Assembly: GCF_000826685.1 (NCBI RefSeq)
Contig: NZ_JROO01000001.1
Location: 1 to 64,000 of the forward strand
Source of the DNA: Streptomonospora alba
GTDB lineage: Bacteria; Actinomycetota; Actinomycetes; Streptosporangiales; Streptosporangiaceae
Reading direction: 5' to 3'
DNA length: 64,000 nucleotides
The notes beneath the pieces are model-generated. The model was not told the DNA's origin. It did not search any database and was given only the letters and a program-made list of their open reading frames with translations. Both the position numbers and the translations under genes were made by a program. How positions within the stretch are numbered: position 1 is the stretch's first letter; the number at the start of each line of letters is the position of its first letter. Below, one piece after another: positions 66 to 23,364 of this stretch.

Positions 66-1640
66 TCAGGCCGACTCGGTCGGCAGCCACCCGCCTGCGC
101 GCAGGGCGTCGAGTGCCTCGGCGACCGACTCCCCGATGGTGCGGCCCTCGGTGTCGAGCACCAGCTCGGCGTCCTCGGGTTCTTCGTAGGGGTCGGAGAT
201 CCCGGTGAACTCGGGGATCTCGCCCGCCCGGGCCTTGGCGTAGAGGCCCTTGCGGTCGCGCGCCTCGCACACTTCCAGCGGGGTGGCCACATGCACCAGG
301 AAGAAGTCGCCCACCTCCTCCACCATCGCCCGCACCTCGGCACGCGTGGCGGCGTAAGGCGCGATGGGCGCACAGACGGCGACGCCGCCGTGGCGGGCGA
401 TCTCGGCCGCCACGTAGCCGATCCGCCGCACGTTGAGGTCGCGATCGGCGCGCGAGAAGGTCAGTCCCGCCGAGAGCATGCGGCGTACGACGTCGCCGTC
501 GAGCAGGGTCAGTGTTCGGCCCGACTTGCGGATGCCCTCGGCCACCCCGCGGGCGATCGTGGACTTGCCCGAGCCCGAGAGCCCGGTGAAGAACACGGTG
601 AGCCCGCGCTCGGTGCGCGGTGGGCGGATGCGCGCCAGCTCAGCGGCCACCCGGGCGGGGGTGAACCATGCGGGAAGGCCGCGGCCCAGCGCCAGCATCT
701 CCTCGACCTCCGCCTCGTCCGGCAGTTCCGCGGCGGCCTCGGGCGCCACCTCGCCGGCCGGGCGCCACTGGGCTTGCGCCGTGTCGTAGGCCCACTCCGG
801 CGCGCGCACCACCGCCACCGGCGCGTCGTCGGCCGCGGGAACAGCGGGGCCGGAGCCGTCGAGAGCCAGCAGGCGCGTGGCGCCGAAGGCGGCTGCGACG
901 TGGGCACGCAGCAGCTCTCGGCGCTCGGCGGAGAGCGTGGCCGCGCCCTCGGCGGATGCGCGGGGCAGCGTCGCCACGACGAAGCGGGCGGGAGCGGGCA
1001 GCAGCGGTTCGGCGGCCAGCACGACCGGCGCCATGCCCGCGCTCTCCAGCGGGGCGTCGATGATCACCAGAACCTCCGCGCGGTCGTCACCGCCCAGCTC
1101 CTCGGCGGCGGCGCGGATCTGGTGCAGTTCGCGGTGGTGCAGCGGGCGGTCGGTGACCACGGCCAGCACCGGAACCCCGCCGTCCCCGGCGAGTTCACGC
1201 TGGCCGCGGACCTGCTCGGGTGAATCGCGCAGATGGCGCAGGGCACCGTAGACGGGCGGCTGGGCGAAGCGCACCTCGCCGGCCAGCCGGTGGCCGGGCG
1301 CGTCGTCGCCGTCGCCCTGCCCTTCCACACCCTCGGCGCCGGACCACCAGCGCTGGCCGACTCGCAACTCCGCCAACGGGGCGCCCTCGGGGTCGGTCAG
1401 TGTCAGGCGTTCGGCGTCGGCGAGCTCGTCGGGCACCGGCAGGGTGACCGGTACCGGCCATGCCCCCCCGTCGGGCATGCGGCCGTCCTTGGCCACCGAG
1501 GCGACCTCCTCACGGGTCATGAACCCGGTCAGCGGGTAAGCTCCGTTGAGGATCAGCTCCAGGTGGGCCAGGCTCACCGGATCGGGCGTGAACACCTGTG
1601 CCGCCGCCTCGTCCTCGTTGCGGTCACTGCTGTCGCTCAA
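66..1640 (-). CDS. cysC: Adenylyl-sulfate (APS) kinase with degenerate N-terminal ATP-sulfurylase-like domain
   Basis: About 524 residues. The C-terminal 170 residues are an APS kinase, which phosphorylates APS to PAPS, the sulfate donor for sulfotransferases. Its P-loop reads FTGLSGSGKST near residue 348, followed by the LDGDVVRRMLS and DRDLNVRRIGYVA blocks typical of CysC. The N-terminal part resembles the PUA-like domain of ATP sulfurylase (VFTPDPVSLAHLELILNGAY), but where the catalytic RNPxHRxHE signature is expected I see only RPLHHREL, so sulfurylase activity is doubtful and the CysDN pair at 18.8-21.1 kb probably supplies it. The chosen start is TTG at 1640, because AGGGAGG lies about 5 bases upstream and homology begins soon after. 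The open frame extends to 1808 only by reading through a tandem repeat. Confidence 0.88.
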   Translation of the reverse strand: MSDSSDRNEDEAAAQVFTPDPVSLAHLELILNGAYPLTGFMTREEVASVAKDGRMPDGGAWPVPVTLPVPDELADAERLTLTDPEGAPLAELRVGQRWWSGAEGVEGQGDGDDAPGHRLAGEVRFAQPPVYGALRHLRDSPEQVRGQRELAGDGGVPVLAVVTDRPLHHRELHQIRAAAEELGGDDRAEVLVIIDAPLESAGMAPVVLAAEPLLPAPARFVVATLPRASAEGAATLSAERRELLRAHVAAAFGATRLLALDGSGPAVPAADDAPVAVVRAPEWAYDTAQAQWRPAGEVAPEAAAELPDEAEVEEMLALGRGLPAWFTPARVAAELARIRPPRTERGLTVFFTGLSGSGKSTIARGVAEGIRKSGRTLTLLDGDVVRRMLSAGLTFSRADRDLNVRRIGYVAAEIARHGGVAVCAPIAPYAATRAEVRAMVEEVGDFFLVHVATPLEVCEARDRKGLYAKARAGEIPEFTGISDPYEEPEDAELVLDTEGRTIGESVAEALDALRAGGWLPTESA

Positions 1641-2371
1641 CCCGGCCTCCCTGATCGTCTCCGCATCCGCTTCTGCGCAACAGCGTATTCGGGTGATCAG
1701 GCGGCGGCACTCCCGCCCGTCACCCACCACCACCCACTCGAAGCGCTCCGCACCACCCACCACCCCAAACGTCACCCACCACCACCCACACCAAGCGCTC
1801 CGCACCACCCACCACCCCGAACGTCACCCACCACATCGGCGTCGCCCACCGCAGCCGGAGACGTCACGCGCATGGAACACCCCGGGCCGGTCAGGCGTTA
1901 CCACTGGTGACCACTGCATTTTCCATCCATGTCGTCCCGGTGTGACCCGTCTGCGTCGCACCAGGGCATCGGGCCGGTTCCGGTCGCGGCGTCTCTCGAC
2001 GCCCGGCGCTTCCGGGCCTGAGGACATGTGCGCCTCGCGGCCGTCGGCCCGGCGCACCCGATCCCGACTCCGATCGCTCCGCCGCCCCACCTGGGCGGCG
2101 CACGCCTACTGCGGCCCCGCGCGGGCGAGAAGGAGGGACATGACCTGGGACACATCCTGGATACGCCACTCCGTGCACCCGCGACAGCCGGGCGGCGTAG
2201 GCTTGCGTGCGGGGAGCCCGTCGCCCCTCCGAGGGCCGGGCACCGATCCGCCACGGCGTGCATCCGGTGCACCGCACCCGGCAGCCGCACGTACCGGGCA
2301 CCCGCTCTCCCGATCGCGCGCCGCGGAGCGCAGCACGGCCGAATCCCTGTCACAGTCTTCTCTCTGGTGAT
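1641..2371. other. Intergenic region between divergent cysC and mfd
   Basis: About 730 bases without a convincing gene. The cysC-proximal part carries a 52-base tandem repeat (1719-1834). Open frames across the rest are compositional shadows with no start-site or family support. Promoters for both divergent neighbours must lie here, but I cannot place them with confidence. Confidence 0.5.
1719..1834. repeat. 52-bp direct tandem repeat, 2.2 copies
   Basis: Unit 1 is 1719-1770, unit 2 is 1771-1822, and the first dozen bases of a third copy follow at 1823-1834. Each unit begins GTCACCCACCACCACCCAC, has AAGCGCTCCGCACCACCCAC in the middle and ends in CACCCC(A/G)AAC. The two full units differ at only a few positions. 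The repeat sits just upstream of the cysC start and is strongly strand-biased (C/A on the plus strand, G/T on the minus strand). Confidence 0.9.
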
Positions 2372-6043
<3,672 letters not shown>

Positions 6044-6608: not shown

Positions 6609-8273
6609 ATGGACACATCCGCCGGAGGAGACCTCACTGACGTGGCGGCCACTGTGCGCCGCCGGTGGCGGGTGGTGGCCGCGTGTGCCGCCGCCGGGCT
6701 GGTGCTGGCCGCGCTCGCGCTGCTGGTGGTACCGCCGACCTACACCTCCACGACGGCGGTCCACGTGCGCCCCACCGGCGTCCCCGAGATCACCGGCGAG
6801 CAGTCCGGGCGGACCGTCGGAGACGTCAATCTCGACACCGAGGCGCAGATCGTGCGGTCGGCCGAGGTCTCGGCGGCGGCCGCGGAGCGGCTCGGTTCCG
6901 GCGCCGACCCCGCCGAACTGCGGCGCAGGGTCGAGGTCACCGTGCCACCCAACAGCAGCGTGCTGCAGATCTCCTACCCGGGTTCCGACCGGCGGTCGGC
7001 CCGCCGGGCCTCGGCCGCGTTCGCCGACGCCTACCTCGAGTACCGGGAGGACCAGATCGACCGGCAGGTCGGCGACATCCTCTCCTCCCTGCGGGACGAG
7101 GTCGACGCCCGCTACACCGAGCTGGACCGGATCCCCGACGAGGACGGCGACGGTGCGCTCCGGCAAGGGCGCATCGCCGCTGTGCAGGACGAGATCGCCG
7201 AACTGAACAAGGAGATCCACCCGCTCACCGCCTTGCGGTCCTCGGTCGTGCCCGCACGGATCATCACCCCGGCCACCACGCCGGAGGAGGCGACCTCGCC
7301 CGTACCCGTGCTGTGGCTGGCCGCCGGAGGCGTGCTGGGTCTGGCCGCCGGGCTCACGGCGGCCTTCGGCGCGGACCGGCGCGACCGCCGTCTGCACACC
7401 GTGCGCGACGCCGAGCGCGCCGCCGGCGTTCCGGTGCTGCTGCGCACGCAGCGCTCGGAGAGCGCCGACGGCGCCGAGCCGGCGCGGGAGGCGCAGCAGG
7501 CCAACCGGGCCGCGCTGAGTCTGGTGTCCGGTATCGGGGACCTCGGCGCCCAGCGCCGTTCCGGTGCCGTCGTACTCGTACCGGGCGTCTCCCGCGGCGG
7601 GGCGTCCGCAACCGCGGCCACTGTGCTCGCCGCCGCCCTGGCTCGCGTGGGCGCCGACGTGCTGCTGGTCCGCGCCGACCCGGCCTCCGCCGGCGCGGCC
7701 GACGGTGCCGGGCTGGCCGACGCGCTGCTCGGCGGAGCCGATCCCGCCGAGCTGGAGCGGCGCACCGCCTCCGCGCCCGGGCTGCGCATCCTCGACTACG
7801 GCGGCGCCGACGCCGCGGACATGTTGCAGCGCCCGGCCATGTCCGGGCTGCTCGACCGGCTGCGCACACAGGCCGACTACGTCGTCGTCGCGACGGCACC
7901 CACCGGCGAGCGCGCCGACGCCTGCGCGCTGGCCCGCGGTGCCGATGCCGTCGTTCCCGTGATCGAGCTGGGTGCGACCCGCATCGAGGACCTGGCCTCG
8001 GCGCTGGCCGCCTTCGCCGCCGTGGACGCCACCGTTCCCGGAACGGTCGCCGCCCCCGCCGGGGTCCGCAAGCGGCTCCTGCTCCGCGGGCGGAGCGAGC
8101 GGGCGGAGCGTGCGGCCTCCCGGCACCGCGAGGAGGCCGCGGAACCGGATTCCATTGCGTCCGCAGAGCCGGAGGCGGCCGAAGAGGAGGCAGCCGCGCA
8201 GTCCCCGCAGGAGCAGACCGGGGTCGGCGGCGCCGACGCCCATGACGGCACCGACCTCGCACTGAAGCGCTGA
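6609..8273 (+). CDS. Wzz-type polysaccharide chain-length protein fused to a degenerate BY-kinase domain
   Basis: About 554 residues and the first gene of the rightward polysaccharide operon. Membrane helices at about 22-42 and 232-253 flank an extracytoplasmic domain (PPTYTSTTAVHVRP at its start), the layout of Wzz/CapA polysaccharide co-polymerases. The C-terminal cytoplasmic part has the fold landmarks of a bacterial tyrosine kinase (VLVPGVSRGGASATAATVLA; DVLLVRADP; DYVVVATAP), but the Walker A lysine is replaced (GGAS where GKS/T is expected), Walker A-prime and B are weakened and there is no C-terminal tyrosine cluster. It is therefore probably a structural rather than catalytic module. 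The start is the ATG at 6609 after GGGGAAAGGA. The acidic tail is low-complexity. The stop overlaps the next start by one base. Confidence 0.8.
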   Translation: MDTSAGGDLTDVAATVRRRWRVVAACAAAGLVLAALALLVVPPTYTSTTAVHVRPTGVPEITGEQSGRTVGDVNLDTEAQIVRSAEVSAAAAERLGSGADPAELRRRVEVTVPPNSSVLQISYPGSDRRSARRASAAFADAYLEYREDQIDRQVGDILSSLRDEVDARYTELDRIPDEDGDGALRQGRIAAVQDEIAELNKEIHPLTALRSSVVPARIITPATTPEEATSPVPVLWLAAGGVLGLAAGLTAAFGADRRDRRLHTVRDAERAAGVPVLLRTQRSESADGAEPAREAQQANRAALSLVSGIGDLGAQRRSGAVVLVPGVSRGGASATAATVLAAALARVGADVLLVRADPASAGAADGAGLADALLGGADPAELERRTASAPGLRILDYGGADAADMLQRPAMSGLLDRLRTQADYVVVATAPTGERADACALARGADAVVPVIELGATRIEDLASALAAFAAVDATVPGTVAAPAGVRKRLLLRGRSERAERAASRHREEAAEPDSIASAEPEAAEEEAAAQSPQEQTGVGGADAHDGTDLALKR

Positions 8274-9778
8274 TGCCGACGTCCGAGGCCCCTTCCCCCG
8301 GCCCCGGCGGCAGACGCCCGCCGACCGGCGGCGCGGGGACCGCCACCGCGGGTTCCGCACCGGCACCGCTCGTTCGGGGCGGTCCCGTACCCGCGCCGCT
8401 GCTCCACCGCCTGTTCTCCCCCGGCTGGCCGGTGCTGTGGCTGCTGGCCGGATACCCGCTGTGGTGGGCGCTGGGGCTGGGCCGGTTCGCGTTCGTCGTG
8501 TTCGCCGTGCCGATGGCCGTCGGGCTCGTGCGGCGCCACAGGTCCGGCGGTCTCCGGCTGCCGCCGGGGTTCGGTCTGTGGGCCCTGTTCCTGCTGTGGT
8601 GCACGGCCGGTCTCACCCTCATCGGCGCCACGCTTCCGGGCACCCTGCCCGGAAGCGGCGGTCCGGTCGGGGCGCTGGCGCGGCTGGCCGGGTACCTCGC
8701 GCTGACCGTCCTGCTGCTCTACATCGGCAACCTGAGCCGCCGAGAGCTGAGTGACCTGGCCGTGGCGCGCGCGCTGGGGTGGCTGTGCCTGGCGACCGTC
8801 GCCGGCGGATGGCTGGGGCTGGCGGCACCGCGCTTCGAGTTCACCTCGCCGGTGGAGCTGCTGCTTCCCGCCGGACTGGCCGCCGATCCTTACGTCCAAG
8901 ACCTCATCCATCCCGCCGCCGCCCAGGTCATGGAGGTGCTGGGCTACGACTCCGCGCGCCCCAAGGCGCCGTGGGAGTACACCAACACCTGGGGCAACAT
9001 GCTCTCGCTGCTGCTGGTGTGGCTGGTGGCGGGCTGGATGCCGACGCGGGAACCGGCCGGAGCGGCGACGGGCGCGGCGCGGCGCTCCCGCGCCGACGTG
9101 GTGCGCGCCTGGATCGCGGGCGGGGCGATCGCGATGGCGGCCGCCCCCGTCGTCTACTCGCTGAACCGCGCGGTGTGGGCGGGACTGGTGCTGTCCCTCG
9201 GTTTCGTGCTGGTCCAGCTGCTGCGGCGGGGCCGCTCGGCCGCGGTCGCGGCGGTGAGCGCCGCCGCCTGCGCCGCGTTGCTGGCCGTGCTGCTGTCCCC
9301 GCTGACGGACGTGGTCCGCGAGCGACTCGACAACCCGCACAGCGACGGCGGCCGCGCCGCCACCAGCCTCGCCGCCGTGGAGGCCGCCAACGCCTCGCCG
9401 GTGCTCGGCTGGGGGACCACTCGGGACATGGCGGGCAGCTCGCAGTCGATCGCGATCGGCTCCTCGCCCGAATGCCCCGACTGCGGCAACCACACCATCG
9501 GCAACAACGGGCAGTTCTGGCTGCTCCTGGTGGCCAACGGGTGGGTCGGCACCGCGCTGTTCCTCGCCTTCTTCGCCCAGGCGCTGTGGCGCTACCGGCA
9601 CGAGACGTCGGTACCGGGCTCGGCGGCGCTGCTGTCGATCCTGCTGCTGTTCTGGTACATGTTCTTCTACGTCGCGCTCGCGGCGCCCCTGGCCGTCACG
9701 ATGATCGCCGTCGCCCTGCTGTGGCGGCGCGCGGCCGAGGCCCGCGGCGCCGGAGCCGTGCCGGGGGGTACGGGGTGA
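8273..9778 (+). CDS. O-antigen ligase / Wzy-like polysaccharide polymerase, membrane protein
   Basis: About 501 residues with roughly ten hydrophobic segments and a long loop (LGWGTTRDMAGSSQSIAIG...CPDCGNHTIGNNGQFWLLLVANGWVG) that matches the periplasmic signature of O-antigen ligase/polymerase proteins. It would polymerise lipid-linked repeat units at the outer face of the membrane. The ATG at 8273 uses the last base of the wzz stop (TGATG), so it is translationally coupled to wzz. A Gly/Pro-rich N-terminal 35 residues precede the first helix. A ligase attaching polymer to a cell-wall acceptor is an alternative role that sequence alone cannot exclude. Confidence 0.78.
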   Translation: MPTSEAPSPGPGGRRPPTGGAGTATAGSAPAPLVRGGPVPAPLLHRLFSPGWPVLWLLAGYPLWWALGLGRFAFVVFAVPMAVGLVRRHRSGGLRLPPGFGLWALFLLWCTAGLTLIGATLPGTLPGSGGPVGALARLAGYLALTVLLLYIGNLSRRELSDLAVARALGWLCLATVAGGWLGLAAPRFEFTSPVELLLPAGLAADPYVQDLIHPAAAQVMEVLGYDSARPKAPWEYTNTWGNMLSLLLVWLVAGWMPTREPAGAATGAARRSRADVVRAWIAGGAIAMAAAPVVYSLNRAVWAGLVLSLGFVLVQLLRRGRSAAVAAVSAAACAALLAVLLSPLTDVVRERLDNPHSDGGRAATSLAAVEAANASPVLGWGTTRDMAGSSQSIAIGSSPECPDCGNHTIGNNGQFWLLLVANGWVGTALFLAFFAQALWRYRHETSVPGSAALLSILLLFWYMFFYVALAAPLAVTMIAVALLWRRAAEARGAGAVPGGTG

Positions 9779-13604: not shown

Positions 13605-14063
13605 ATGACGACCTCGCCGCTACTCTTCGTCGCGTCCAGCGGCGGCCACCTCGCCCAGCTCTGGTCGCTGCGGCCGTGGTGGATCCGACACCGCAGGATC
13701 TGGGTCACCTTCCCCACCGCCGACGCACTGCAGCTCCTCGACGGCGAGGACGTCCGCTCGGCGCACCACCCCACCACCCGCCATGCGGGCAACCTGCTGC
13801 GCAACACGGTGCTCGCGGTACGCACGCTGGCCCGTACCCGCCCCGCTGCCGTGGTCTCCACCGGCGCCGGCGTCGCCCTGCCGTTCTTCGCGCTGGCCTG
13901 GCTGCTGCGCATCCCCACCGTCTACATCGAGGTCTACGACCGCATCGACGCCCCGCCCCTGACCACCCGGCTGTGCCGGCCCTTCACCCGGCTGCACCTC
14001 ACCCAGTGGGAGGAGCAGCGCGCGTTCCTGCCCCACGCCGTCACCGTTGGACCGCTGCTGTGA
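13605..14063 (+). CDS. PssD/Alg14-like glycosyltransferase subunit
   Basis: About 152 residues. The N-terminus LLFVASSGGHLAQLWSL and the central VVSTGAGVALPFFALAWLLRIPTVYIEVYDR match the Alg14/PssD/CpsF family, which anchors and activates an Alg13/PssE partner to transfer the second sugar onto a lipid-linked primer. The ATG has AAAGGA upstream. It follows the flippase after a 90-base gap that is locally A/T-rich and may hold an internal promoter. The next gene starts inside its stop codon (GTGA), consistent with a two-subunit enzyme. Confidence 0.85.
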   Translation: MTTSPLLFVASSGGHLAQLWSLRPWWIRHRRIWVTFPTADALQLLDGEDVRSAHHPTTRHAGNLLRNTVLAVRTLARTRPAAVVSTGAGVALPFFALAWLLRIPTVYIEVYDRIDAPPLTTRLCRPFTRLHLTQWEEQRAFLPHAVTVGPLL

Positions 14064-15598
14064 CCGGCGACGCCCCGCAGCGCGGCGACGGACCCGCCGG
14101 TGCCGCGCAGGAGCCGGATACGGCCCCGGCCGCCGCGGAGCGCCCGCTGGTGCTGGTCGCCGTGGGCACCGACCACCACGCCTTCACCCGGCTCATCGAC
14201 TGGGCCGACGGTTACGCGCTCGACAGGCCCGATGTGCGGGTCCTGGTGCAACACGGCGCCTCGGCCGCGCCGTCCGCCGCCGAGGGCACCGCCTACTTCG
14301 AGCCCGGCGGTCTCGGCGCGGCCATGGGCAGGGCCGCGGCCGTGGTCACCCACGGCGGGCCCGCCACCATCGCCGAGGCGCGCGAGGCCGGGCACCTGCC
14401 CGTCGCCGTCGCCCGCGACCCCGAACTGCACGAGCACGTCGACGACCATCAGCTGTGTTTCGTGAGCCGCCTCGACGAGGCGGGGCTGGTGCGCTCCTGC
14501 TCCAGCTACCAGCAGTTCCGCACCACCCTCGACAAGGCCCTGGCCCAGCCCCGGGACTTCCGCCTGCCGGCCCCCTCCGGCGCCGGCACCGCCACCGCCG
14601 CCCACCGCGCAGGCCGCCTCATCGACCTGCTCATCGGCACCCGCGAAGCCCGGCCCGACCGCCCGCTGCCGCGGGCGCGCGAGGACGCGCACTGGCCGGA
14701 GATCACCGCGGTCGTACCCACCCGCGACCGCCCCGACCTGCTGCGCCGGACCCTGGAGCACATCCGCGCTCAGGACTACCCCGGCACCGTGCGCACCCTC
14801 GTGGTCTTCGACGGCACAGACCCCGACCGCTCGCTGGAGCGCGACGACGGCAGACGGCCGGTGCGGGTGCTGGCCAACACCGCGGCGCCGGGACTGGCCG
14901 GTGCCCGCAACACCGGCATCCTGGCCGCCGAAACCGAACTGGTCGCCTTCTGCGACGACGACGATCTCTGGCTGCCCGGAAAACTGCGCGCCCAGGCCGC
15001 GGTGCTGTGCGCCGAACCCGCGACCGAGCTGGTGTGCTGCGGTATTCGCATCGCCTACGACGGCGCCACGTCCGACCGGGTACTGCAGCGCTCCACTGTG
15101 GACTTCGCCGACCTGCTGCGCTCACGGTTGACCGAGCTGCACCCCTCGACGTTCCTGCTGCGGCGCAGCGCTCTCCTCGACGGGTGCGGATCCGTCGACG
15201 AGGAGATCCCGGGCGGCTACGGCGAGGACTACGAACTGCTGCTGCGGCTGGCCCGGCGCGCCCCGATCCGCAACGTGGGCGAGCCGCTCGTGCGGGTGCT
15301 GTGGCACCGGCGCTCCTACTTCGGCGGCCGGTGGCAGACGATCGCCACCGCCTTGCGCTGGCTGCTCACCGCCTATCCGGAGTTCCGGCTGGTCCCGCGC
15401 GGCTACGCCCGAGTCGCAGGGCAGATCGCCTTCGCCGAGGCCGCGGCGGGCCGGCGCGGCGCCGCTCTGGAATGGTGCACGGCGGCGCTGCGCGCCCGCT
15501 GGACCGAACCGCGCGCCTACCTCGCCGCCGCCGTGGCCTGCGGACTGCCCGCCGCGGCGGTGCTGCGGGCCCTGCACAGGCGCGGCCGCGGGATCTAG
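14060..15598 (+). CDS. PssE/Alg13-like subunit fused to a GT2-family glycosyltransferase
   Basis: About 512 residues in two parts. Residues 1 to about 190 resemble the GT28 C-terminal domain of Alg13/PssE (VLVAVGTDHHAFTRLIDW; ADVVTHGG-type segment AAAVVTHGGPATIAEAREAGHLPVAVARDPELHEHVDDHQ). Residues from about 213 onward are a GT2 glycosyltransferase (ITAVVPTRDRPDLLRRTLEHI; AGARNTGILAAETELVAFCDDDDLWLPGKL with the metal-binding aspartates). Such a fusion would let one polypeptide add two successive sugars, the first together with the upstream Alg14-like subunit. It starts at GTG 14060 and is the last gene of the operon. Confidence 0.8.
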   Translation: MTGDAPQRGDGPAGAAQEPDTAPAAAERPLVLVAVGTDHHAFTRLIDWADGYALDRPDVRVLVQHGASAAPSAAEGTAYFEPGGLGAAMGRAAAVVTHGGPATIAEAREAGHLPVAVARDPELHEHVDDHQLCFVSRLDEAGLVRSCSSYQQFRTTLDKALAQPRDFRLPAPSGAGTATAAHRAGRLIDLLIGTREARPDRPLPRAREDAHWPEITAVVPTRDRPDLLRRTLEHIRAQDYPGTVRTLVVFDGTDPDRSLERDDGRRPVRVLANTAAPGLAGARNTGILAAETELVAFCDDDDLWLPGKLRAQAAVLCAEPATELVCCGIRIAYDGATSDRVLQRSTVDFADLLRSRLTELHPSTFLLRRSALLDGCGSVDEEIPGGYGEDYELLLRLARRAPIRNVGEPLVRVLWHRRSYFGGRWQTIATALRWLLTAYPEFRLVPRGYARVAGQIAFAEAAAGRRGAALEWCTAALRARWTEPRAYLAAAVACGLPAAAVLRALHRRGRGI

Positions 15599-15810: not shown

Positions 15811-17556
15811 TCAGCGGCTCCGCGATACTCCCCGCGTATTCACTTTGCGGGCCTTGTCGGCCAGTTCCATGGCCTCGTCCACGGCGTCGCGGACCTGATG
15901 GGGCACGTTGACGTAGCGGTCGCCGGAGGCCCGCAGGTAGCCGTCGGTGGCGTGGCGGTTCTCCAGGACGCGGAAGTCGCAGGTGGGCGCGGTGATCCCG
16001 TCCCAGAGCTTGACTGCGCGGATGCGCTCGTACTTCTGAAGCGCTTCGGGGATGTCGGAGTACCACTCCCTGGTGGCCTCAGGGGCGCCCGGAATCGGCA
16101 CCGTTCCCATCTCGCCGATCATCACCGGCTTGTCGGGGTCGATGCCGTGTTCGGGCCCTTCGTTCTGGATCCACTCATAGGCCGGACGCAGCGCCTCCTC
16201 GAAGGTGTCGACGTGGTCCCACCTCGGCTGAAGCTCACACCCGGTCATGTTGTAGGCCTCCCAGCTGATCCAGTCGACGTAGTCGTTTCCCGGCCACAGG
16301 CCGGGCAGCCGGTCGAGGTTGGCCGGCCAGCCGGTCACGTTCCACACGAAGACGGCGTTGTCGGCGCCACTGTCGCGGTAGAGGTCGACGATGTGCCGCC
16401 AGGCGCGGACGAACTCCTCAGGCGTGCCGCGGGTGTTGTAGCGCTTCCCGGCGTCGGCCTCGTGGTCGAAGGTGACGAAGAACGGCAGGCCCAGGTCGGC
16501 GATGCGGCGCGCCTGGCCGCGCAGCGAGTCGTCGAAGCGGCCGGCGATGATGTCGCTGTAGCTCTGCGCCGGATGGCCCTGGACGTTGAACCGCTTGGCC
16601 TCGATGTTGACGTGGACGAAGCGCCCCTCCTCGGCAAGCGTGCGTTCCCTGTCCGTGGGCACGCGATGCTGGTCGACGCCGTGCCAGGTGTAGACGATGT
16701 CCAGCGGGCGGTCGGCTGCGGCCTCCAGCGGCTCGACGTTGCCCCGGTGCGGACTCGCTCCCCACCACACGCCGCATGTCGGCTCCATGATCGCGGTGAC
16801 GGTGCACTCGTCTGAGGGCGGCGCGGGCGGCGCGGGGGTGGGCCCGGGAAGGTCCGGCGACGGCTGGGCGGACTCCTCCGGTGCCTCGCTCGCGGAGTGG
16901 GAGGGGAAACCGGTGGTCGGCGGGGCCGGATCGGGGCTGCCCGCAGGCGCCTCTCCCGAAGGCGAGGGCGCGGGAGCGGGATCGGGCCCTGACGGCTCCC
17001 CCGCATCAGGCGAGGCGGAAGTTCCGGCGGAGGGCTGCGGCGCCGACGCAGACGGCGAGGGCGCGGACGGCACTGACGGCGCCGACGCGGAGGCCGACGG
17101 GGAGGACGGCGCCGGTGCCGTGTGCCCGGTGCCCGCGTCGGGTGACGGGGTTCCGGCAGAGGGCTGCGGCGCACTCGCCGACGAGGAAGGGGCGGAGGGC
17201 GATCCCGAGGCGCCGGGCGGACCGCTCGGCTGCGCGGCGGCGTCGGGCCGGGGCCCTGTCGTCGGCGCGGCACCGGAGGCGCCCGCAGCCGAGGGGCGTA
17301 CGGCACCCGCGGTCCCCGTCGGCGGGGTGTCCCAGACGGCGCCGCTCGGCGCCGGGGAGCCGTGGCCGGTCGCGGGCCCCGCCTCGTCGGTGGGGTAGGC
17401 GGTGGTGGTGATGGCTCCGGGCGGCGCGCACGCCGCGACCGCGATCGTCACAGCGAGCGCTGCGCCGCCGCAGCGTGTGGGAGTGCAGACTCCCAGCGCC
17501 CGCCGGACGCCGCGGCAGCTCCGCTCGGCACCTTCGACTCTCCGTGATTCTCCCAT
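15811..17556 (-). CDS. Secreted lipoprotein with GH26-type (beta-mannanase-like) glycoside hydrolase domain
   Basis: About 581 residues. The N-terminus has an arginine-rich start, a hydrophobic core and AVAAC (Cys about 43), consistent with a lipoprotein signal. Then comes a linker of roughly 190 residues made of Pro/Ala/Ser/Gly repeats that would span the cell wall. The catalytic domain (from about 250) has the GH26 layout: acid/base candidate in FVTFDHEADAG (Glu about 362), VWNVTGWP, and nucleophile candidate in VMIGEMGTVP (Glu about 480). It is last in the leftward unit and converges on the glycosyltransferase operon, so it probably trims or releases the polysaccharide. No clear ribosome site precedes the ATG, so the start is uncertain. 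Confidence 0.8.
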   Translation of the reverse strand: MGESRRVEGAERSCRGVRRALGVCTPTRCGGAALAVTIAVAACAPPGAITTTAYPTDEAGPATGHGSPAPSGAVWDTPPTGTAGAVRPSAAGASGAAPTTGPRPDAAAQPSGPPGASGSPSAPSSSASAPQPSAGTPSPDAGTGHTAPAPSSPSASASAPSVPSAPSPSASAPQPSAGTSASPDAGEPSGPDPAPAPSPSGEAPAGSPDPAPPTTGFPSHSASEAPEESAQPSPDLPGPTPAPPAPPSDECTVTAIMEPTCGVWWGASPHRGNVEPLEAAADRPLDIVYTWHGVDQHRVPTDRERTLAEEGRFVHVNIEAKRFNVQGHPAQSYSDIIAGRFDDSLRGQARRIADLGLPFFVTFDHEADAGKRYNTRGTPEEFVRAWRHIVDLYRDSGADNAVFVWNVTGWPANLDRLPGLWPGNDYVDWISWEAYNMTGCELQPRWDHVDTFEEALRPAYEWIQNEGPEHGIDPDKPVMIGEMGTVPIPGAPEATREWYSDIPEALQKYERIRAVKLWDGITAPTCDFRVLENRHATDGYLRASGDRYVNVPHQVRDAVDEAMELADKARKVNTRGVSRSR

Positions 17557-17711: not shown

Positions 17712-18635
17712 TCAGTAGCCGAACCTCGGCCGGCTCGCGCAGGTCAGCGCGGAGACCGCGAACCGGCCCGGCGGCCGCAGACCGTTGCCGCGCCCCGCGT
17801 CGGCGCGCACCCGCACGGCGCCGGAGTCGAACCGCATCGGGTTGCCCGAGACCGTGTGCGTCGGTGACAGCCGCGCCGTGCCCGCGGCGTCGACCGGCAG
17901 GTCACCGGTGTGGCCGGCGAACTGCGCCAGGATGCCGAACTCCCCGGCGGGGTCGGCCACGAAATCCTCGTAGCGCACGCGCAGCGTCGGCACGCCCAGT
18001 CGGCTCACGCGCGCCAGCACCTCGTTCTGCACGGTCCACTGCACGGCTGCGCGGCCGGGCGAGTAACGGGCCATCTCCTGTTCGGGGCTGGTCGCGGTGG
18101 CATCGGGCCGCGGCACCCGTTTGCCCCATGCGTGGGCGACGTCCCGCGGGTCGCGCAGCACGTGGACCAGGTGCAGCCGTCCGCCGTAGCGGTGACGCAG
18201 GCAGGCCGCGAGAGAGGCGTGCTTGCTGGAGTCGACGACCACCCGGCAGCCGCTCACGTGGGCCGCAGCGGCGTAGAGCCGGTCGTAGAGGGCGGTGTAG
18301 TGCGCCAGCCGCTCGGCCATACGCGCCGGCGGACGGGCGCCGAGCAGAGCCGGCACGAAGCGGGTCCGGTCGACGGAGGCCTTGAGCGCGAGGACGTCGG
18401 CCGCATCCAGCCGGTCCCAGCCGCCGAACGCGGTCTCGCCGACGTCCCGCCAGAAACGGCACGCGCGGAACGGGGCTCCGCAGCCGCAGGGCTCGCCGTC
18501 GACCAGCGCCCGGCGCCACATGTGCACCACTTCGCCCAGCGAGCAGACATCGGGCAGTGCACCCAGCAGGCGCTCGATCAGCGTGGAGCCGGAGCGCCCC
18601 ATACCGCCGACGTAGAGCAGTCGGAAATCGTCCAC
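17712..18635 (-). CDS. PAPS-dependent sulfotransferase
   Basis: About 307 residues. The PAPS loop YVGGMGRSGSTLIERLLG lies at residues 8-25 and the 3'-phosphate motif VLRDPRDVAHAW at 159-170. A cysteine cluster (PCGCGAPFRAC, 49-59) is typical of this bacterial sulfotransferase subgroup. It is not closely similar to the other sulfotransferase at 11.1 kb, so the two probably sulfate different positions or sugars. It lies 178 bases downstream of cysN and 155 bases upstream of the GH26 gene on the same strand. The start GTG has no obvious ribosome site, and a 14-base palindrome (18651-18664, CCGTGCGCGCACGG) lies just upstream. Confidence 0.82.
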   Translation of the reverse strand: MDDFRLLYVGGMGRSGSTLIERLLGALPDVCSLGEVVHMWRRALVDGEPCGCGAPFRACRFWRDVGETAFGGWDRLDAADVLALKASVDRTRFVPALLGARPPARMAERLAHYTALYDRLYAAAAHVSGCRVVVDSSKHASLAACLRHRYGGRLHLVHVLRDPRDVAHAWGKRVPRPDATATSPEQEMARYSPGRAAVQWTVQNEVLARVSRLGVPTLRVRYEDFVADPAGEFGILAQFAGHTGDLPVDAAGTARLSPTHTVSGNPMRFDSGAVRVRADAGRGNGLRPPGRFAVSALTCASRPRFGY

Positions 18636-18813: not shown

Positions 18814-20082
18814 TCACTCGGTGCGGACGATCATCCCAGCGGCGACCGTGGTGTTGGTGCCTTCCTCGATGAGGACGAACCCGCCGGTCAGCCGGTTGTT
18901 CTTGTACTCGTCCACGAACAGCGGCTGGGTGGCGCGCATGCTCACGCGCCCGATCTCGTTCAGCGAGAGATCCTCGGCGCTCTCGTCGCGGTGCAGGCTG
19001 TTGACGTCCAGCCGGTAGCGCACGTCGCGCACCACGACCTTGGCGGTGCGTGTCGTGTGCTTGATGACCAGCTTGGAGCTGGGCGTGAGCTTGCGGCTCT
19101 CGGCCATCCAGCAGATCATCGCCTCGATGTCCTGCGACGCCTCGGGCTGGTTGTTGGGCCGGCACAGCATGTCGCCGCGCGAGATGTCGATGTCGTCCTC
19201 AAGCAGCACCGTCACCGACATGGGCGGGAACACCTCGTCGAGCTCTCCGTCGGCGGTGAGGATCTTGGCGATGCGGCTGGTCAGCCCTGAGGGAAGGTGC
19301 ATGACCTCGTCGCCCGCCTTGAACACCCCGCCGGAGACCATCCCGCCGTAGCCGCGGTAGTCGTGCAGCTCGGGGTCGGCGGCGCGCTGCGGCCGGATGA
19401 CGGTCTGCACGGGGAACCGCGCGTCGATCAGGTTCCGGTCGGAGGCGATGTGGACGTGCTCCAGGTGGTGCAGGAGCGAGGAGCCGTCGTACCACGGCAT
19501 GTTGATGGAGCGGTCCACCACGTTGTCGCCGTGCAGCGCCGAGATCGGGATGAACGTGAGGTCGCTGACGTCGAGCTTGGTGGCGAAGGCTGTGAACTCC
19601 TCCTTGATCTCGTCGAACCGCTCCTGGGAGTAGTCGACGAGGTCCATCTTGTTGATGGCCACCACCAGGTGGGGCACCTGCAGCAGGGTGGTCAGGAAGG
19701 CGTGGCGGCGGCTCTGCTCCTGCAGGCCCTTGCGCGCGTCGACCAGGATGACCGCCAGGTCGGAGGTCGAGGCCCCGGTGACCATGTTGCGGGTGTACTG
19801 GATGTGCCCGGGGGTGTCGGCGATGATGAAGGTCCGCCGCGGCGTCGCGAAGTAGCGGTAGGCGACGTCGATGGTGATGCCTTGTTCGCGCTCGGCGCGC
19901 AGGCCGTCGGTGAGCAGCGCCAGGTTGGTCGTCTCCTCGCCGCGGCCGCGGCTGGTGCGCTCCACGGCGTCGAGCTGGTCCTCGAAGATCGACTTGGAGT
20001 CGAACAGGAGGCGGCCGATCAGGGTGGACTTTCCGTCGTCGACCGAGCCGGCCGTGGCGAACCGCAGAATGTCTGTACTCAT
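18814..20082 (-). CDS. cysN: Sulfate adenylyltransferase subunit 1 (GTPase)
   Basis: About 422 residues. It is the GTP-driven subunit of ATP sulfurylase and makes APS with CysD. G-box motifs are intact: GSVDDGKSTLIGRLL, DTPGHIQYTRNM, NKMDLVD, followed by elongation-factor-like beta-barrel domains. There is no fused APS kinase, consistent with a separate cysC at 0.07 kb. The ATG at 20082 is preferred over a TTG five codons earlier because GGAA precedes it at suitable distance and homology begins there. It follows cysD by about 40 bases in the leftward operon. Confidence 0.95.
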   Translation of the reverse strand: MSTDILRFATAGSVDDGKSTLIGRLLFDSKSIFEDQLDAVERTSRGRGEETTNLALLTDGLRAEREQGITIDVAYRYFATPRRTFIIADTPGHIQYTRNMVTGASTSDLAVILVDARKGLQEQSRRHAFLTTLLQVPHLVVAINKMDLVDYSQERFDEIKEEFTAFATKLDVSDLTFIPISALHGDNVVDRSINMPWYDGSSLLHHLEHVHIASDRNLIDARFPVQTVIRPQRAADPELHDYRGYGGMVSGGVFKAGDEVMHLPSGLTSRIAKILTADGELDEVFPPMSVTVLLEDDIDISRGDMLCRPNNQPEASQDIEAMICWMAESRKLTPSSKLVIKHTTRTAKVVVRDVRYRLDVNSLHRDESAEDLSLNEIGRVSMRATQPLFVDEYKNNRLTGGFVLIEEGTNTTVAAGMIVRTE

Positions 20083-21100: not shown

Positions 21101-21892
21101 CTACCCCGCCGCGTGTGGATCCGCGCCGTCGCGTTCGGCGACGCCGCGGATACTGGCCAACAACATATTCGACAATTCCGGTCGGCAGACAAGAATATCC
21201 GGAAGCGAGGGGTCGGTCCTGTTATAGGTGAGCTCGCTGCCGTCGATGCGCGACGTGTGCAGACCGGCCGCGCGCGCGACCGCCACCGGTGCGGCGCTGT
21301 CCCACTCGTATTGACCGCCCGCGTGCACGTAGATGTCGGCGATCCCCAGCAGCACGGCGCAGATCTTGGCTCCGGCCGAGCCCATGGGGACGATCTCCGC
21401 GCCCAGCTGGTTGGCCAGGCGCTGCACGAACTCCGGGGGGCGCGTGCGGCTGGTGGTGATGCGCAGTCGCTGCTCCGTGGGGCGCTCCTCGGGAAACCAC
21501 GGGGGGTCGACGGTGGAGACCGTGGTGCCCTGGGCGGGCAGCGCCACGGCGCCCGCAGCGAGCTCGCCGTTCTCCCACAGCGCCACGTGCACCGCCCAGT
21601 CGGTGCGGCCCGACTCGGAGTACTCGCGAGTGCCGTCGAGCGGGTCGATGATCCACACCCGCCGGGCGCTCAACCGCGCCTTGTCGTCGATGCCCTCCTC
21701 GGAGAGCACGGCGTCGCTGGGGCGCAGGCGACCCAGACTGGAGAAGAGGAACTCGTGCGACGTGCGGTCGCCGAGTGTGCGCAGGACCTCGGGCTCGTCG
21801 AACCCCTGCCGCGCCCGCAGCCGGAGCAACTGCTGCCCCGCCTCGTTCGCCAGGTCACGCGCGACTTCATGATCGTTTCGGATGCTGCTCAC
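21101..21892 (-). CDS. cysQ: 3'(2'),5'-bisphosphate nucleotidase / inositol-monophosphatase family (CysQ-like)
   Basis: About 263 residues. The metal-binding motifs of the family are present: VLSEEGIDD, WIIDPLDGTREYSE and WDSAAPVAVARAAGL. CysQ hydrolyses PAP, the inhibitory by-product of sulfotransferases (and PAPS), to AMP (APS). Its position between an initiating sugar transferase and cysDN supports a role in sulfation metabolism. The start is GTG at 21892, only five bases after the stop of the sugar-transferase gene, with GCGGGAG upstream. An open frame continues far upstream but overlaps the preceding gene in another frame and is not coding. Confidence 0.86.
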   Translation of the reverse strand: MSSIRNDHEVARDLANEAGQQLLRLRARQGFDEPEVLRTLGDRTSHEFLFSSLGRLRPSDAVLSEEGIDDKARLSARRVWIIDPLDGTREYSESGRTDWAVHVALWENGELAAGAVALPAQGTTVSTVDPPWFPEERPTEQRLRITTSRTRPPEFVQRLANQLGAEIVPMGSAGAKICAVLLGIADIYVHAGGQYEWDSAAPVAVARAAGLHTSRIDGSELTYNRTDPSLPDILVCRPELSNMLLASIRGVAERDGADPHAAG

Positions 21893-21897
21893 CGGCC

Positions 21898-23364
21898 TTA
21901 GTACGCTCCCGCTCCGCGGACAACTGCTGACCATGTCTTCCACAGGATCTGGACGTCCAGGGTCAACGACCAGTTTTCCACGTATCGCAGGTCGAGTCGG
22001 ACGGACTCCTCCCAGGAGAGATCCGACCGGCCGCTGACCTGCCACAGCCCTGTCATGCCCGGCTTGACCACCAGGCGCCGACGAACATCGCGGCCGTACC
22101 GCGCCACCTCTTCGGGCAGCGGGGGTCGCGGTCCCACGAGTGACATATCCCCCCGCACCACGTTGAGCAGTTGCGGGAGTTCGTCCAGCGAATAGCGGCG
22201 CAGCCAGCCGCCGAACGCGGTGACCCGAGGGTCGCGGCGCATCTTGAACAATACGCCGTCGTGCTCGTTGGCGAGACGCAGTCCCCCTTTGAGGTCCTCC
22301 GCCCCGGCCACCATGGTACGGAACTTGTAGAGGGTGAATTGTACTCCGTCCTTGCCCACCCGCGTCTGGCGGAACAGTGCCGGCCCGCGGTCCCGCGCGC
22401 GGATCAGCACGGCGAGGCCGAGCAGCAGGGGCGCCAGCACCACCAGGGCGAGTGCGGCGGCGGCCCTGTCGAACAGGCCCTTGACGGCGCGTCTGGCCCC
22501 GGCCAGTTCGGGGTGCTCGACGTGCAGGAGCGGAAGCCCCGCGACGGGGCGGATGGTCGTGCGCGGCCCCGCCACCTCCATCAGCGCGGGCGCCACGGTC
22601 AGGTCGGTGCCGCTCTTCTCCAGCCGCCAGGCCAGCCGGCGCAGCTCCGTCCCGTCCATCTCCGGGCACGACAGCACGGCCACCGTGTCGGCGCCGGACC
22701 GCTCGGCGGCCTCGGCGGCACCGTCGAACGCGCCCAGCACGGGGCAGCCGTCCACCTCCTCGCCCGCCTGCCGCAGCTGGTGGCCGGGCAGGCACAGGCC
22801 CATGACACGCATCCCGTGATAGGGCTCGCGGCGGAACCGGAGGATCAACTCGCGGGCGGATTCCAGGTGACCCACCGCCACCACGCCGCGCATGCACCGG
22901 CCCCGGGCGCGCAGCCGGTGCAGCCGCTTGCGCCAGGCGTAGCGCATCACCAGGCTGGCCGCCACCGCCGTGGGCAGCGCCAGCAGCACATAGCCCCGGG
23001 CGACGTCGACCCGCACGGCGTAGGCGCAGATCGCCACCGCTGCGGTCAGCACCGTTCCGGCGCTCAGTACACGGCGGAACTCCTCGGTGCCCTGCCCGAT
23101 GAACCGCCGGGCGTAGCCGCCCGACAGCGCGACCGCCAGCATCCACAGCGCAGGCAGCACCAGCGAGAACAGCAGGTACCACCCCTCCGACGGCGTATCG
23201 AGGGGGTGGGCGAAGCGGGTCTGCAGCGCCGACGCCCCGGCGAGCACGCCGGCACCCGCGTCGATCCACCGCAGCCCGCGTACGTAGGAGCGCATCCACT
23301 CGGGCCACGTGCGGACGGCCGGCGCGCCTGCGGACTGCGCCGGGACCCGTTCGATGGCGACCAT
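21898..23364 (-). CDS. Undecaprenyl-phosphate sugar phosphotransferase (initiating transferase, WbaP/EPS family)
   Basis: About 488 residues. It transfers a sugar-1-phosphate to undecaprenyl phosphate and so starts repeat-unit assembly. The N-terminal half has four to five membrane helices and a CoA-binding-like domain. The C-terminal bacterial sugar transferase domain shows KGLFDRAAAALALVVLAP, LYKFRTMV, RRYSLDELPQLLNVVRGDMSLVGPRPPLPEE and KPGMTGLWQVSGRSDLSWEE. It is first in the leftward operon, followed by cysQ five bases after the stop. Start choice lies between ATG 23364 (GGGG just upstream) and GTG 23382 (AGGGGG upstream). Confidence 0.9.
   Translation of the reverse strand: MVAIERVPAQSAGAPAVRTWPEWMRSYVRGLRWIDAGAGVLAGASALQTRFAHPLDTPSEGWYLLFSLVLPALWMLAVALSGGYARRFIGQGTEEFRRVLSAGTVLTAAVAICAYAVRVDVARGYVLLALPTAVAASLVMRYAWRKRLHRLRARGRCMRGVVAVGHLESARELILRFRREPYHGMRVMGLCLPGHQLRQAGEEVDGCPVLGAFDGAAEAAERSGADTVAVLSCPEMDGTELRRLAWRLEKSGTDLTVAPALMEVAGPRTTIRPVAGLPLLHVEHPELAGARRAVKGLFDRAAAALALVVLAPLLLGLAVLIRARDRGPALFRQTRVGKDGVQFTLYKFRTMVAGAEDLKGGLRLANEHDGVLFKMRRDPRVTAFGGWLRRYSLDELPQLLNVVRGDMSLVGPRPPLPEEVARYGRDVRRRLVVKPGMTGLWQVSGRSDLSWEESVRLDLRYVENWSLTLDVQILWKTWSAVVRGAGAY

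What the first reader, a model, noticed from the sequence alone, without database searches (positions are those of the whole stretch)
66..23364. Candidate sulfated-polysaccharide biosynthesis and export locus
Seen: an initiating sugar transferase, Wzz-, Wzy- and Wzx-like proteins, Alg14/Alg13-type and GT2 glycosyltransferases, two PAPS sulfotransferases, cysD, cysN, cysQ and a separate APS kinase, in two converging units plus a nearby gene. Known: CysDN and CysC make PAPS; sulfotransferases consume it; CysQ removes PAP. Inference: a self-contained sulfate-activation module serves a sulfated surface polysaccharide. Sulfated polysaccharides are rare and poorly described in actinomycetes. The absence of APS/PAPS and sulfite reductase genes strengthens the case.
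Basis: partly seen in the sequence, partly recalled or inferred. Interest (0 to 1): 0.92.

Follow-up and report, generated by a model that had tools for sequence, protein, structure and literature searches.

The report
Sulfated surface sugar-polymer gene locus
A Streptomonospora-like actinomycete carries a conserved gene locus that very probably makes and exports a sulfated surface polysaccharide, and the same locus holds the only sulfate-activating enzymes found in the genome, so it probably also feeds ordinary cysteine production.

Summary
Between mfd and pth, two converging gene runs encode Wzz, Wzy, an APH-like kinase, a heparan-sulfate-type sulfotransferase (ST1), Wzx, PssD/PssE-GT2, a GH26 enzyme, a second sulfotransferase (ST2), CysN, CysD, CysQ and an initiating sugar transferase; an APS kinase lies beyond mfd. 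A Wzx/Wzy-type sulfated polysaccharide is well supported by domains, two confident sulfotransferase models and synteny: ST2 lies within 3 kb of cysN in 33 of 49 genera examined. "Self-contained sulfate activation" is not supported. This is the only ATP sulfurylase and APS kinase found in the genome, while CysH and sulfite reductase sit on another contig, so CysDN should also serve cysteine synthesis. Relatives that lost both sulfotransferases keep cysQDN. Prior art: the wps-1 cluster of Actinoplanes missouriensis (PMC13390465, 2026) has the same wzz-wzy-kinase-sulfotransferase-wzx core beside a Sat/APS-kinase-family gene, and most of its mutants make abnormal sporangia; its sulfation is likewise inferred. 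Here the kinase's Sat half lacks the catalytic motifs, so it should act only as APS kinase. Verdict: a new variant of a very recently described kind; ester sulfate still needs chemical proof.

The parts
66..1763 (-). APS kinase (CysC type) with an N-terminal Sat-like half that lacks the catalytic motifs
   Evidence: PF01583 3.6e-58; TIGR00455 apsK 188 bits over its 138.7 cut-off, sopT 48.8 against 322.95; Sat motifs absent; the only PF01583 match in the genome
2372..6043 (+). mfd (transcription-repair coupling factor), conserved flank
   Evidence: Pfam; synteny
6609..8273 (+). Wzz-like chain-length protein with a C-terminal stretch resembling EPS tyrosine-kinase domains
   Evidence: PF02706 5.8e-9; TIGR01005/TIGR01007 similarity below cut-off
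8432..9778 (+). Wzy-like polymerase
   Evidence: PF04932 2.7e-7, 30.9 bits, just under the 31.7 cut-off; syntenic in several families
9775..11004 (+). APH-fold small-molecule kinase, substrate unknown
   Evidence: PF01636 6e-7; APH-like HGDL...N and DWE motifs seen in the translation (motif meaning recalled)
11065..11940 (+). ST1, heparan-sulfate-type sulfotransferase
   Evidence: PF13469/PF00685; PDB 3rnl and HS 3-OST/NDST by sequence and fold
11910..13514 (+). Wzx-like MATE/polysaccharide flippase
   Evidence: PF01554 5e-8; PF01943 3.7e-4, below its cut-off
13605..14063 (+). Alg14/PssD-like glycosyltransferase subunit
   Evidence: PF08660 24 bits, below its 27 cut-off; NF041549 PssD 6e-24, below its cut-off
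14060..15598 (+). Alg13/PssE-like half fused to a GT2 glycosyltransferase
   Evidence: PF04101 and PF00535; NF041548 PssE 5e-15, below its cut-off
15811..17556 (-). GH26-family enzyme: lipobox-like N-terminus, long Pro/Ser/Ala-rich linker, catalytic domain (the short gene call was 15811-16788)
   Evidence: PF02156 20.5 bits against a 20.2 cut-off; PDB 2v3g E 2.7e-9, both Glu columns aligned (roles recalled); long frame; N-termini of relatives
17712..18635 (-). ST2, Sulfotransfer_3-family sulfotransferase
   Evidence: PF13469 5.9e-13; model pLDDT 94.8, top 20 PDB fold matches are sulfotransferases
18814..20082 (-). CysN, GTPase subunit of ATP sulfurylase
   Evidence: TIGR02034 554 bits; the only one over cut-off in the genome
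20124..21056 (-). CysD, catalytic subunit of ATP sulfurylase
   Evidence: TIGR02039 449.6 bits; one of two PF01507 matches in the genome, the other being CysH
21101..21892 (-). CysQ-like PAP phosphatase
   Evidence: PF00459; best PDB match 5djf, 3'-phosphoadenosine 5'-phosphate phosphatase, 2.5e-72; TIGR01331 CysQ is the best NCBIfam model but below its cut-off, 111 of 228.8 bits
21898..23364 (-). polyprenyl-phosphate hexose-1-phosphate transferase (WbaP/WcaJ type), initiating enzyme
   Evidence: TIGR03025 418 bits over its 295.55 cut-off; WbaP 320.6 and WcaJ 319.4 both below theirs, so the sugar is undecided
23653..27968 (-). pth, rplY, prs, glmU: conserved housekeeping flank
   Evidence: Pfam; synteny

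Best explanation
The locus builds a sulfated polysaccharide by the Wzx/Wzy route and houses the cell's only known sulfate-activating enzymes. Proposed steps: the WbaP/WcaJ-type enzyme loads a hexose-1-phosphate on undecaprenyl phosphate. The PssD/PssE-like pair and the GT2 extend it to an oligosaccharide. CysDN makes APS, the APS kinase makes PAPS, and ST1 and ST2 move sulfate from PAPS to the sugars in the cytoplasm. CysQ removes the PAP. Wzx flips the unit, Wzy with Wzz polymerises it, and an exported GH26 enzyme trims or releases the polymer. CysDN is not dedicated: part of its APS should go to an APS-reductase-type CysH and a sulfite reductase encoded elsewhere, so sulfation and cysteine supply share one ATP sulfurylase. 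Shown: gene content and order, no second copy found, conservation, sulfotransferase folds as predicted models, absence of the Sat motifs. Inferred: substrate flow, sugars, sulfation of the polymer, its surface fate, the CysH substrate.
For: Domain content. ST1 has the HS 3-OST/NDST fold, Foldseek E 1.2e-14 for 3rnl and 8.2e-13 for 3-OST-1, and its glycine-rich and RDP loops are invariant or nearly so in 45 aligned rows, window included. ST2 is a sulfotransferase by fold, best E 4.8e-7. Synteny: wzy-APH-ST1-wzx in a row, among genes with a hit, in 29 of 80 loci found through ST2. In one genome per genus for 49 genera, cysQ-cysD-cysN in a row in 47, pth in the region in 45, cysH or sir in 0, and ST2 (200 bits or more) within 3 kb of cysN, same strand, in 33. 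CysN tree: the window's gene lies in a 94-row clade (SH-aLRT 100) with none of the 15 reductase-linked copies. Sole copy; of 39 family genomes, own included, 37 have exactly two PF01507 matches and 2 have three. In Actinoplanes, deletions of the core wps-1 genes or of the neighbouring Sat/APS-kinase-family gene disturb sporangia (PMC13390465), and the matching layout was found beside the APS kinase in 3 of 11 Micromonosporaceae genomes fetched.
Against: No chemistry: ester sulfate has not been shown here or in Actinoplanes. At the column where human 3-OST has a Glu (recalled as the catalytic base) 41 of 45 ST1 rows have Gly, so mechanism or acceptor may differ. ST2 has only remote solved relatives (best sequence E 0.018; TMq 0.29-0.52 in the top 20). 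In Actinoplanes the wpsB sulfotransferase mutant still formed normal-looking sporangia, with fewer spores released. The order pth-cysQ-cysD-cysN also occurs without these polysaccharide genes in other families, so part of the cysDN link may be inherited position. APS kinase and CysQ persist in relatives without ST1 and ST2, where other sulfotransferase genes exist.
Confidence: 0.8

Rival explanations
1. The polysaccharide locus is real, but cysQ-cysD-cysN is merely an old neighbour of pth that serves cysteine synthesis and the general PAPS pool. Its place beside ST2 is positional inheritance, without special wiring to the polymer.
For: cysQDN stays between pth and mfd in 7 of 7 regions without ST1, ST2, wzx and wzz, e.g. 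same-genus G107 and G018; pth-cysQDN without these genes also in other families; no second copy found.
Against: By the gene calls wbaP ends 5 bp before cysQ, and ST2 follows cysN on the same strand within 3 kb in 33 of 49 genera. The clade of this CysN holds none of the 15 reductase-linked copies. The APS kinase lies beside the sulfotransferase cluster in 3 of 11 Micromonosporaceae genomes too.
Confidence: 0.3
2. The sulfotransferases act on something else, such as a glycolipid, protein or secondary metabolite, and the Wzx/Wzy polymer is not sulfated.
For: ST2's only sequence matches among solved structures are weak ones to tyrosylprotein sulfotransferases, which also lead its fold matches; ST1's 3-OST-type Glu is mostly Gly; no acceptor data exist.
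Against: ST1 overlaps wzx and follows the APH gene in the wzz-wzy run; the order wzy-APH-ST1-wzx is kept in several families; ST1's nearest fold relatives with known substrates act on heparan sulfate; in Actinoplanes the mutant of the heparan-type sulfotransferase gene wpsH resembles the wzx, wzy and wzz mutants (PMC13390465).
Confidence: 0.12
3. It is an ordinary assimilatory cysDN cluster next to an unrelated capsule locus, and the reader over-read it.
For: CysDN should serve assimilation here, since no other ATP sulfurylase was found.
Against: No cysH or sir in any of the 49 cysN regions (up to 20 kb, some cut by contig ends); two sulfotransferases, CysQ and an APS kinase are not needed by an APS-reductase route (recalled biochemistry); the gene order recurs too widely for chance.
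Confidence: 0.04

Closest known systems
wps-1 cluster of Actinoplanes missouriensis (PMC13390465, 2026)
   Same: Wzz, Wzy, kinase-like protein, heparan-type sulfotransferase and Wzx in the same order (WpsK-J-I-H-G), plus a second sulfotransferase, GH26, GT2 and a neighbouring Sat/APS-kinase-family gene (AMIS_7390). The core beside an APS kinase was seen here in Jidongwangia, Phytohabitans and Micromonospora loci.
   Different: The window adds cysQ-cysD-cysN and a WbaP-type gene in one gene run, has PssD/PssE-like proteins where wps-1 has a GT26 (WpsC), shows no methyltransferase (WpsF) or DUF4262 (WpsD) gene, and sits between mfd and pth. The paper's main text has 0 occurrences of cysD, PAPS and Nocardiopsis. 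Sequences of wps-1 itself were not compared.
Sulfated capsule cluster of Cobetia marina KMM 1449 (PMC11766843)
   Same: Capsule genes with sulfotransferases and a cysNC-cysD-cysQ PAPS set inside the cluster; there the structure of the sulfated polymer was determined (abstract and passages).
   Different: A marine bacterium that the paper's cluster description assigns ABC-transporter (Kps) export rather than Wzx/Wzy, a CysNC fusion and a sulfate permease gene.
Synechan cluster of Synechocystis (PMC8205485; search listing only)
   Same: Sulfated exopolysaccharide, by title and start of abstract.
   Different: Cyanobacterial; not read here.
Actinobacterial CysNC/CysQ sulfation branch (mycobacterial type)
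   Same: CysDN-type ATP sulfurylase, APS kinase and CysQ; CysQ's best PDB match is 5djf (M. tuberculosis origin recalled).
   Different: In class-sample family f4, copies away from the reductases are fused to an APS kinase, with no polysaccharide core in the regions fetched; that f4 is the mycobacterial family is my inference.

Membership tests
Wzx/Wzy-dependent polysaccharide pathway | Polyprenyl-phosphate sugar-phosphate transferase | tested here: met
   TIGR03025 over cut-off
Wzx/Wzy-dependent polysaccharide pathway | Wzx flippase, Wzy polymerase and Wzz in one locus | tested here: met
   PF01554 and PF02706 over cut-off; PF04932 30.9 bits against 31.7, so Wzy is the weakest call and leans on synteny
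PAPS sulfotransferase (ST1) | Sulfotransferase fold with the nucleotide-binding loops | tested here: met
Heparan sulfate 3-OST/NDST (ST1) | Catalytic Glu at the aligned column (role recalled) | tested here: not met
   Gly in 41 of 45 aligned rows, window included, and 71 of 80 in the wider set; not filed as a 3-OST
PAPS sulfotransferase (ST2) | Sulfotransferase fold | tested here: met
   pLDDT 94.8; top 20 Foldseek matches are sulfotransferases, with TMq only 0.29-0.52
PAPS sulfotransferases (ST1, ST2) | Use of PAPS; acceptor | not testable with these tools
   Needs enzyme assay
wps-1-type cluster | wzz-wzy-kinase-ST-wzx core with a second ST, GH26 and an APS-kinase-family gene nearby | tested here: met
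   against PMC13390465 section 6; by gene content and order, not by comparison with the wps-1 sequences
wps-1-type cluster | Polymer carries ester sulfate | not testable with these tools
   Not verified in Actinoplanes either
Bifunctional ATP sulfurylase/APS kinase | Active Sat motifs (QxRN, GRDHAG; recalled) | tested here: not met
   Absent in the window; the motif patterns matched only 2 of 52 aligned rows, both titled as Acidobacteria
Dedicated sulfation module | A cysDN copy of its own, separate from an assimilatory one | tested here: not met
   Only one copy found
Assimilatory cysDN cluster | CysH or sulfite reductase beside cysDN | tested here: not met
   On contig C46 instead; 0 of 49 regions

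The most novel reading that the evidence does not exclude
Across a large actinomycete family (the window's, 68 genera in the 200-genome sample) a sulfated surface polysaccharide is a widespread ancestral trait. The cell's single ATP sulfurylase has become part of that polysaccharide's operon, so surface sulfation and cysteine synthesis are wired to one promoter and one APS pool, split between an APS reductase and a stand-alone APS kinase whose inactive Sat half may steer APS to the sulfotransferases.
Probability: 0.3. Interest if true: 0.72.

Novelty: new variant of a known kind. Interest (0 to 1): 0.58.

Why it matters
PMC13390465 says that sulfated polysaccharides are not common in bacteria apart from cyanobacteria and only raises the possibility for actinomycetes. 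The data here suggest that the trait is not a curiosity of Actinoplanes: an ST2 homologue at E <= 1e-30 is found in 135 of 200 genomes of the window's family (some are distant or lie away from cysN), and related gene sets occur in loci titled Modestobacter, Geodermatophilaceae, Nocardioides and Kineosporia and in Micromonosporaceae. It also offers a reason for that paper's unexpected result: AMIS_7390, if it resembles the homologues examined here, is an APS kinase without Sat activity and would feed the cluster's sulfotransferases. Because no second set of sulfate-activating genes was found, the locus lets one test how a cell divides activated sulfate between surface sulfation and cysteine.

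Tried and rejected
Second cysDN set or Sat-type ATP sulfurylase: looked for in the own genome, none found. In 39 family genomes, own included, 13 have a PF01747 match (22.0 to 40.9 bits; all marked over Pfam's 24.3 cut-off, two of them only with neighbouring stretches). In 12 of 13 the match lies within 26 kb of that genome's cysN or cysD (coordinates), read as the Sat-like half of the APS kinase; motifs were inspected for two of these (G018, G107). G164's lies about 2 Mb away and was not followed.

ST2 frameshift near its C-terminus: suspected from the odd tail, rejected because homologues align to residue 307.

First adjacency count: one search gave ST2 'within two genes' of cysN in 37 of 49, counting only genes with a hit and including two weak or distant ones (G016 at 36 bits, G031 about 9 kb away). 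Recounted by distance and score: 33 of 49.

Search for the wps-1 homologue through family f15: 0 of 29 genomes matched; the tool itself notes that such an empty answer shows nothing. Replaced by a search of 15 genomes behind named loci.

Paper searches for an earlier description gave only PMC13390465 as a direct precedent in actinomycetes among the listings seen; two searches returned nothing, one search had 1,134 papers of which 12 were listed. Subscription journals are mostly not held.

The list of regions without ST1, ST2 and wzy (11 of 49) includes artefacts: G001 and G068 end at contig edges, G031 has ST2 near the region's edge, G050 keeps wzz, wzx and others, G048 does not show mfd. Only the regions that show mfd were used for natural losses.

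Rows dropped: of the 68 genera, regions were fetched for 49 besides the own genus, because one search printed only part of its places. The CysN tree left out rows under 350 aligned residues and used nine of the 80 named loci; its labels depend on regions of at most 20 kb, so some rows are mislabelled (L147, from G128, is called pthQ although the polysaccharide genes lie in the next stretch, L146). Structure alignments used 45 of 124 ST2 and 44 of 89 ST1 hits.

Full report
WHAT IS THERE. The window is the first 64 kb of a 147-kb contig of a 5.9-Mb genome; the window has 72% G+C. Its genus is most likely Streptomonospora (Nocardiopsidaceae): same-genus genome G080 has a contig of the same length (188,640 bases) as the named Streptomonospora mangrovi record behind L011, and ST2 is 76% identical to that record's. 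Between mfd (2372-6043) and pth (23653-24339) two gene runs converge: wzz-wzy-APH-ST1-wzx-alg14/pssD-alg13/pssE-GT2 on the plus strand, and wbaP-cysQ-cysD-cysN-ST2-GH26 on the minus strand. By my gene calls three plus-strand junctions overlap by 4 to 31 bases, and wbaP ends 5 bp before cysQ. An APS kinase lies beyond mfd.

THE PROTEINS. NCBIfam puts the initiating enzyme over the cut-off of TIGR03025 but under those of both WbaP and WcaJ, so the first sugar is undecided. The Alg14/Alg13 pair resembles PssD/PssE, below curated cut-offs. Wzy is the weakest call (PF04932 30.9 bits, cut-off 31.7). ST1 matches 3rnl and the heparan sulfate 3-O- and N-sulfotransferases by sequence and, as an AlphaFold2 model with mean pLDDT 94.2, by fold (Foldseek E 1.2e-14 and 8.2e-13). 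ST2 has hardly any sequence relative with a solved structure (best E 0.018), but for its model (pLDDT 94.8) the top 20 fold matches are all sulfotransferases, with modest TM-scores (TMq 0.29-0.52). One result against a simple reading: at the column where human 3-OST has the Glu that I recall as the catalytic base, 41 of 45 ST1 rows, window included, have Gly (71 of 80 in the wider set). The GH26 reading frame runs back to 17556 and starts with a lipobox-like segment and a long Pro/Ser/Ala-rich linker, and many relatives show a hydrophobic or lipobox-like N-terminus too, so the enzyme is probably exported (judged by eye; no signal-peptide program was run). Both catalytic Glu columns align with the endoglucanase H (2v3g) structure (roles recalled).

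THE SULFATE ENZYMES. CysQ's best solved relative is 5djf, a PAP phosphatase (E 2.5e-72); the NCBIfam CysQ model is its best match but below cut-off (111 of 228.8 bits). The 'separate APS kinase' is 565 aa by my call. Its C-terminal half passes the apsK cut-off, while its N-terminal half scores 48.8 bits against a 322.95 cut-off for ATP sulfurylase. The motifs of active Sat (QxRN, GRDHAG; recalled, and seen in the Aquifex chain 2gks for the first) are replaced in the window; of 52 aligned rows, some of them short kinases without a Sat half, only two match the motif patterns (L069 and L080, both titled Acidobacteria or Thermoanaerobaculia). Those two also lie beside wzx and ST2 homologues, a useful contrast: there one protein should do both steps.

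IS THE MODULE SELF-CONTAINED? No. In the own genome PF01507 has two matches: the window's cysD and a CysH on contig C46. Next to CysH lie a sulfite reductase (NIR_SIR 1.3e-57) and a CbiX-family gene but no cysDN. CysH carries the Cys pair and CxxC that I recall as [4Fe-4S] ligands of APS reductases, and reaches 233.5 bits with the APS reductase model (cut-off 235.3) against 184 with the PAPS reductase model (cut-off 254.2); its best solved relative, 7lhr, is however deposited as a PAPS reductase. APS is therefore likely, not proven, as its substrate. TIGR02034 has one match over cut-off, PF01747 none at E <= 0.001 in the genome search (the window protein itself reached 25 bits), PF01583 one. 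Completeness is 97.49%, so a missed copy cannot be excluded in this genome alone. In the family sample 194 of 200 genomes have CysN at E <= 1e-100, and 177 of these have one copy, 17 more than one. Of 39 family genomes, own included and many with few contigs, 37 have exactly two PF01507 matches and 2 have three. The simplest reading is that this CysDN feeds both cysteine synthesis and sulfation.

CONSERVATION. A scan with ST2 found 99 relatives, of which 80 loci were kept. Among genes with a hit, the order wzy-APH-ST1-wzx is unbroken in 29 of 80, and cysD, cysN and ST2 occur together in 35 of 80, with cysQ in 32. For 49 genera of the family, one genome each, regions of up to 20 kb around cysN were fetched: cysQ-cysD-cysN in a row in 47, pth in 45, cysH or sir in none, ST2 of 200 bits or more within 3 kb of cysN and on its strand in 33. 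ST2 homologues at E <= 1e-30 occur in 135 of 200 genomes. In a class-wide sample CysN was in 101 of 118 genomes, and 60 regions were annotated; there, reductase-linked and cysQ-linked neighbourhoods are distinct. In a tree of 125 CysN rows the window's lies in a 94-row clade (SH-aLRT 100) with none of the 15 reductase-linked copies, and in a 58-row clade (96) of rows from its own family and named Nocardiopsis and Actinomadura loci; three second copies from the family (L102, L103, L115) lie elsewhere (quick tree, several long branches, labels limited by region length). Rows with and without the polysaccharide genes are interspersed in that clade, which fits repeated loss, though label noise adds to it.

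NATURAL LOSSES. Nine regions show mfd on the far side of cysN from pth or beside it without the full cluster. Seven have no match to wzz, wzx, ST1 or ST2 (G006, G007, G018, G040, G049, G063 and same-genus G107; G049 has a 41-bit wzy remnant), and two keep ST1 (G010, G042). Of the seven, G006, G007, G049 and G063 still have the GT2 gene, G040 an alg14 remnant; G018 and G107 have neither. All nine keep cysQ-cysD-cysN, and eight show the APS kinase near mfd (not seen in the G007 region). In G107 only the APH gene is left between mfd and cysN. These seven genomes still have 1 to 4 Sulfotransfer_3 matches, some of them pieces of one gene, and the own genome has such genes on five other contigs, so a general PAPS need can explain why APS kinase and CysQ remain. 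The order pth-cysQ-cysD-cysN without these polysaccharide genes also exists in other families. Thus the position of cysQDN is old, and part of the link may be inherited.

PRIOR ART. PMC13390465 (abstract, outline, passages, sections 6 and 16 and part 1 of 2 of section 17 seen) describes wps-1 in Actinoplanes missouriensis: WpsK, J, I, H and G are Wzz, Wzy, a kinase-like protein, a heparan-type sulfotransferase and Wzx, with GH26, GT2 and a second sulfotransferase, and AMIS_7390, a Sat/APS-kinase-family gene, adjacent. Deleting wpsA, C, G, H, I, J or K gives squashed sporangia; wpsB (the second sulfotransferase) gives normal-looking sporangia that release about a tenth of the spores; the AMIS_7390 mutant has a severe defect that the authors call unexpected; sulfation awaits verification. 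I fetched APS-kinase neighbourhoods from 11 genomes of Micromonosporaceae (Jidongwangia and Phytohabitans checked; Micromonospora recalled): in 3 of 11 (L233; L237 with L238; L243) the APS kinase lies beside or within about 2 kb of wzz-wzy-APH-ST1-wzx, with ST2 and the GT2 homologue in two of these; the other 8 showed no such cluster in the stretches fetched, which were 17 to 37 kb. The Actinoplanes genes themselves were not compared. A sulfated capsule with a cysNC-cysD-cysQ set inside its gene cluster, and with its structure determined, is published for Cobetia marina (PMC11766843, abstract and passages).

VERDICT. The gene locus is real and very probably makes a sulfated Wzx/Wzy polysaccharide. 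It belongs with wps-1, as a variant that carries the only ATP sulfurylase found in the genome, and CysQ, in the same gene run. The unproven steps are the presence of sulfate on the polymer, the acceptors of ST1 and ST2, the role of the APH-like kinase, the substrate of CysH, and common regulation.

Noticed in passing
window 9775-11004: The APH-like kinase is kept near mfd in 5 of the 7 relatives that lost ST1, ST2, wzx and wzz at this place (G006, G007, G049, G063, G107), so it may have a role of its own or be among the last genes to go.
   Followed up: partly
L069 and L080, compared with window 66-1763: Two loci titled Acidobacteria/Thermoanaerobaculia carry an apparently intact Sat-APS kinase (motifs kept) beside wzx and ST2 homologues, unlike the window's kinase.
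   Followed up: partly
window 17712-18635: ST2 rows share invariant Cys50, Cys52 and Cys59 (46 of 46 in alignment A1), a possible metal site or disulfide not typical of sulfotransferases as far as I recall.
   Followed up: no
window 6609-8273: The Wzz-like protein has a C-terminal stretch resembling EPS tyrosine-kinase domains whose P-loop looks degenerate by eye.
   Followed up: no
window 34057-35648: Transketolase-like enzyme split over two adjacent genes.
   Followed up: no
L102, L103 (G016): This genome has three CysN matches; the two fetched are a divergent kind (about 648 bits) with no cysQ, pth or polysaccharide core found around them.
   Followed up: no
G000 contigs C77, C68, C55, C22, C18: Further Sulfotransfer_3 genes outside the window, unassigned.
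   Followed up: no
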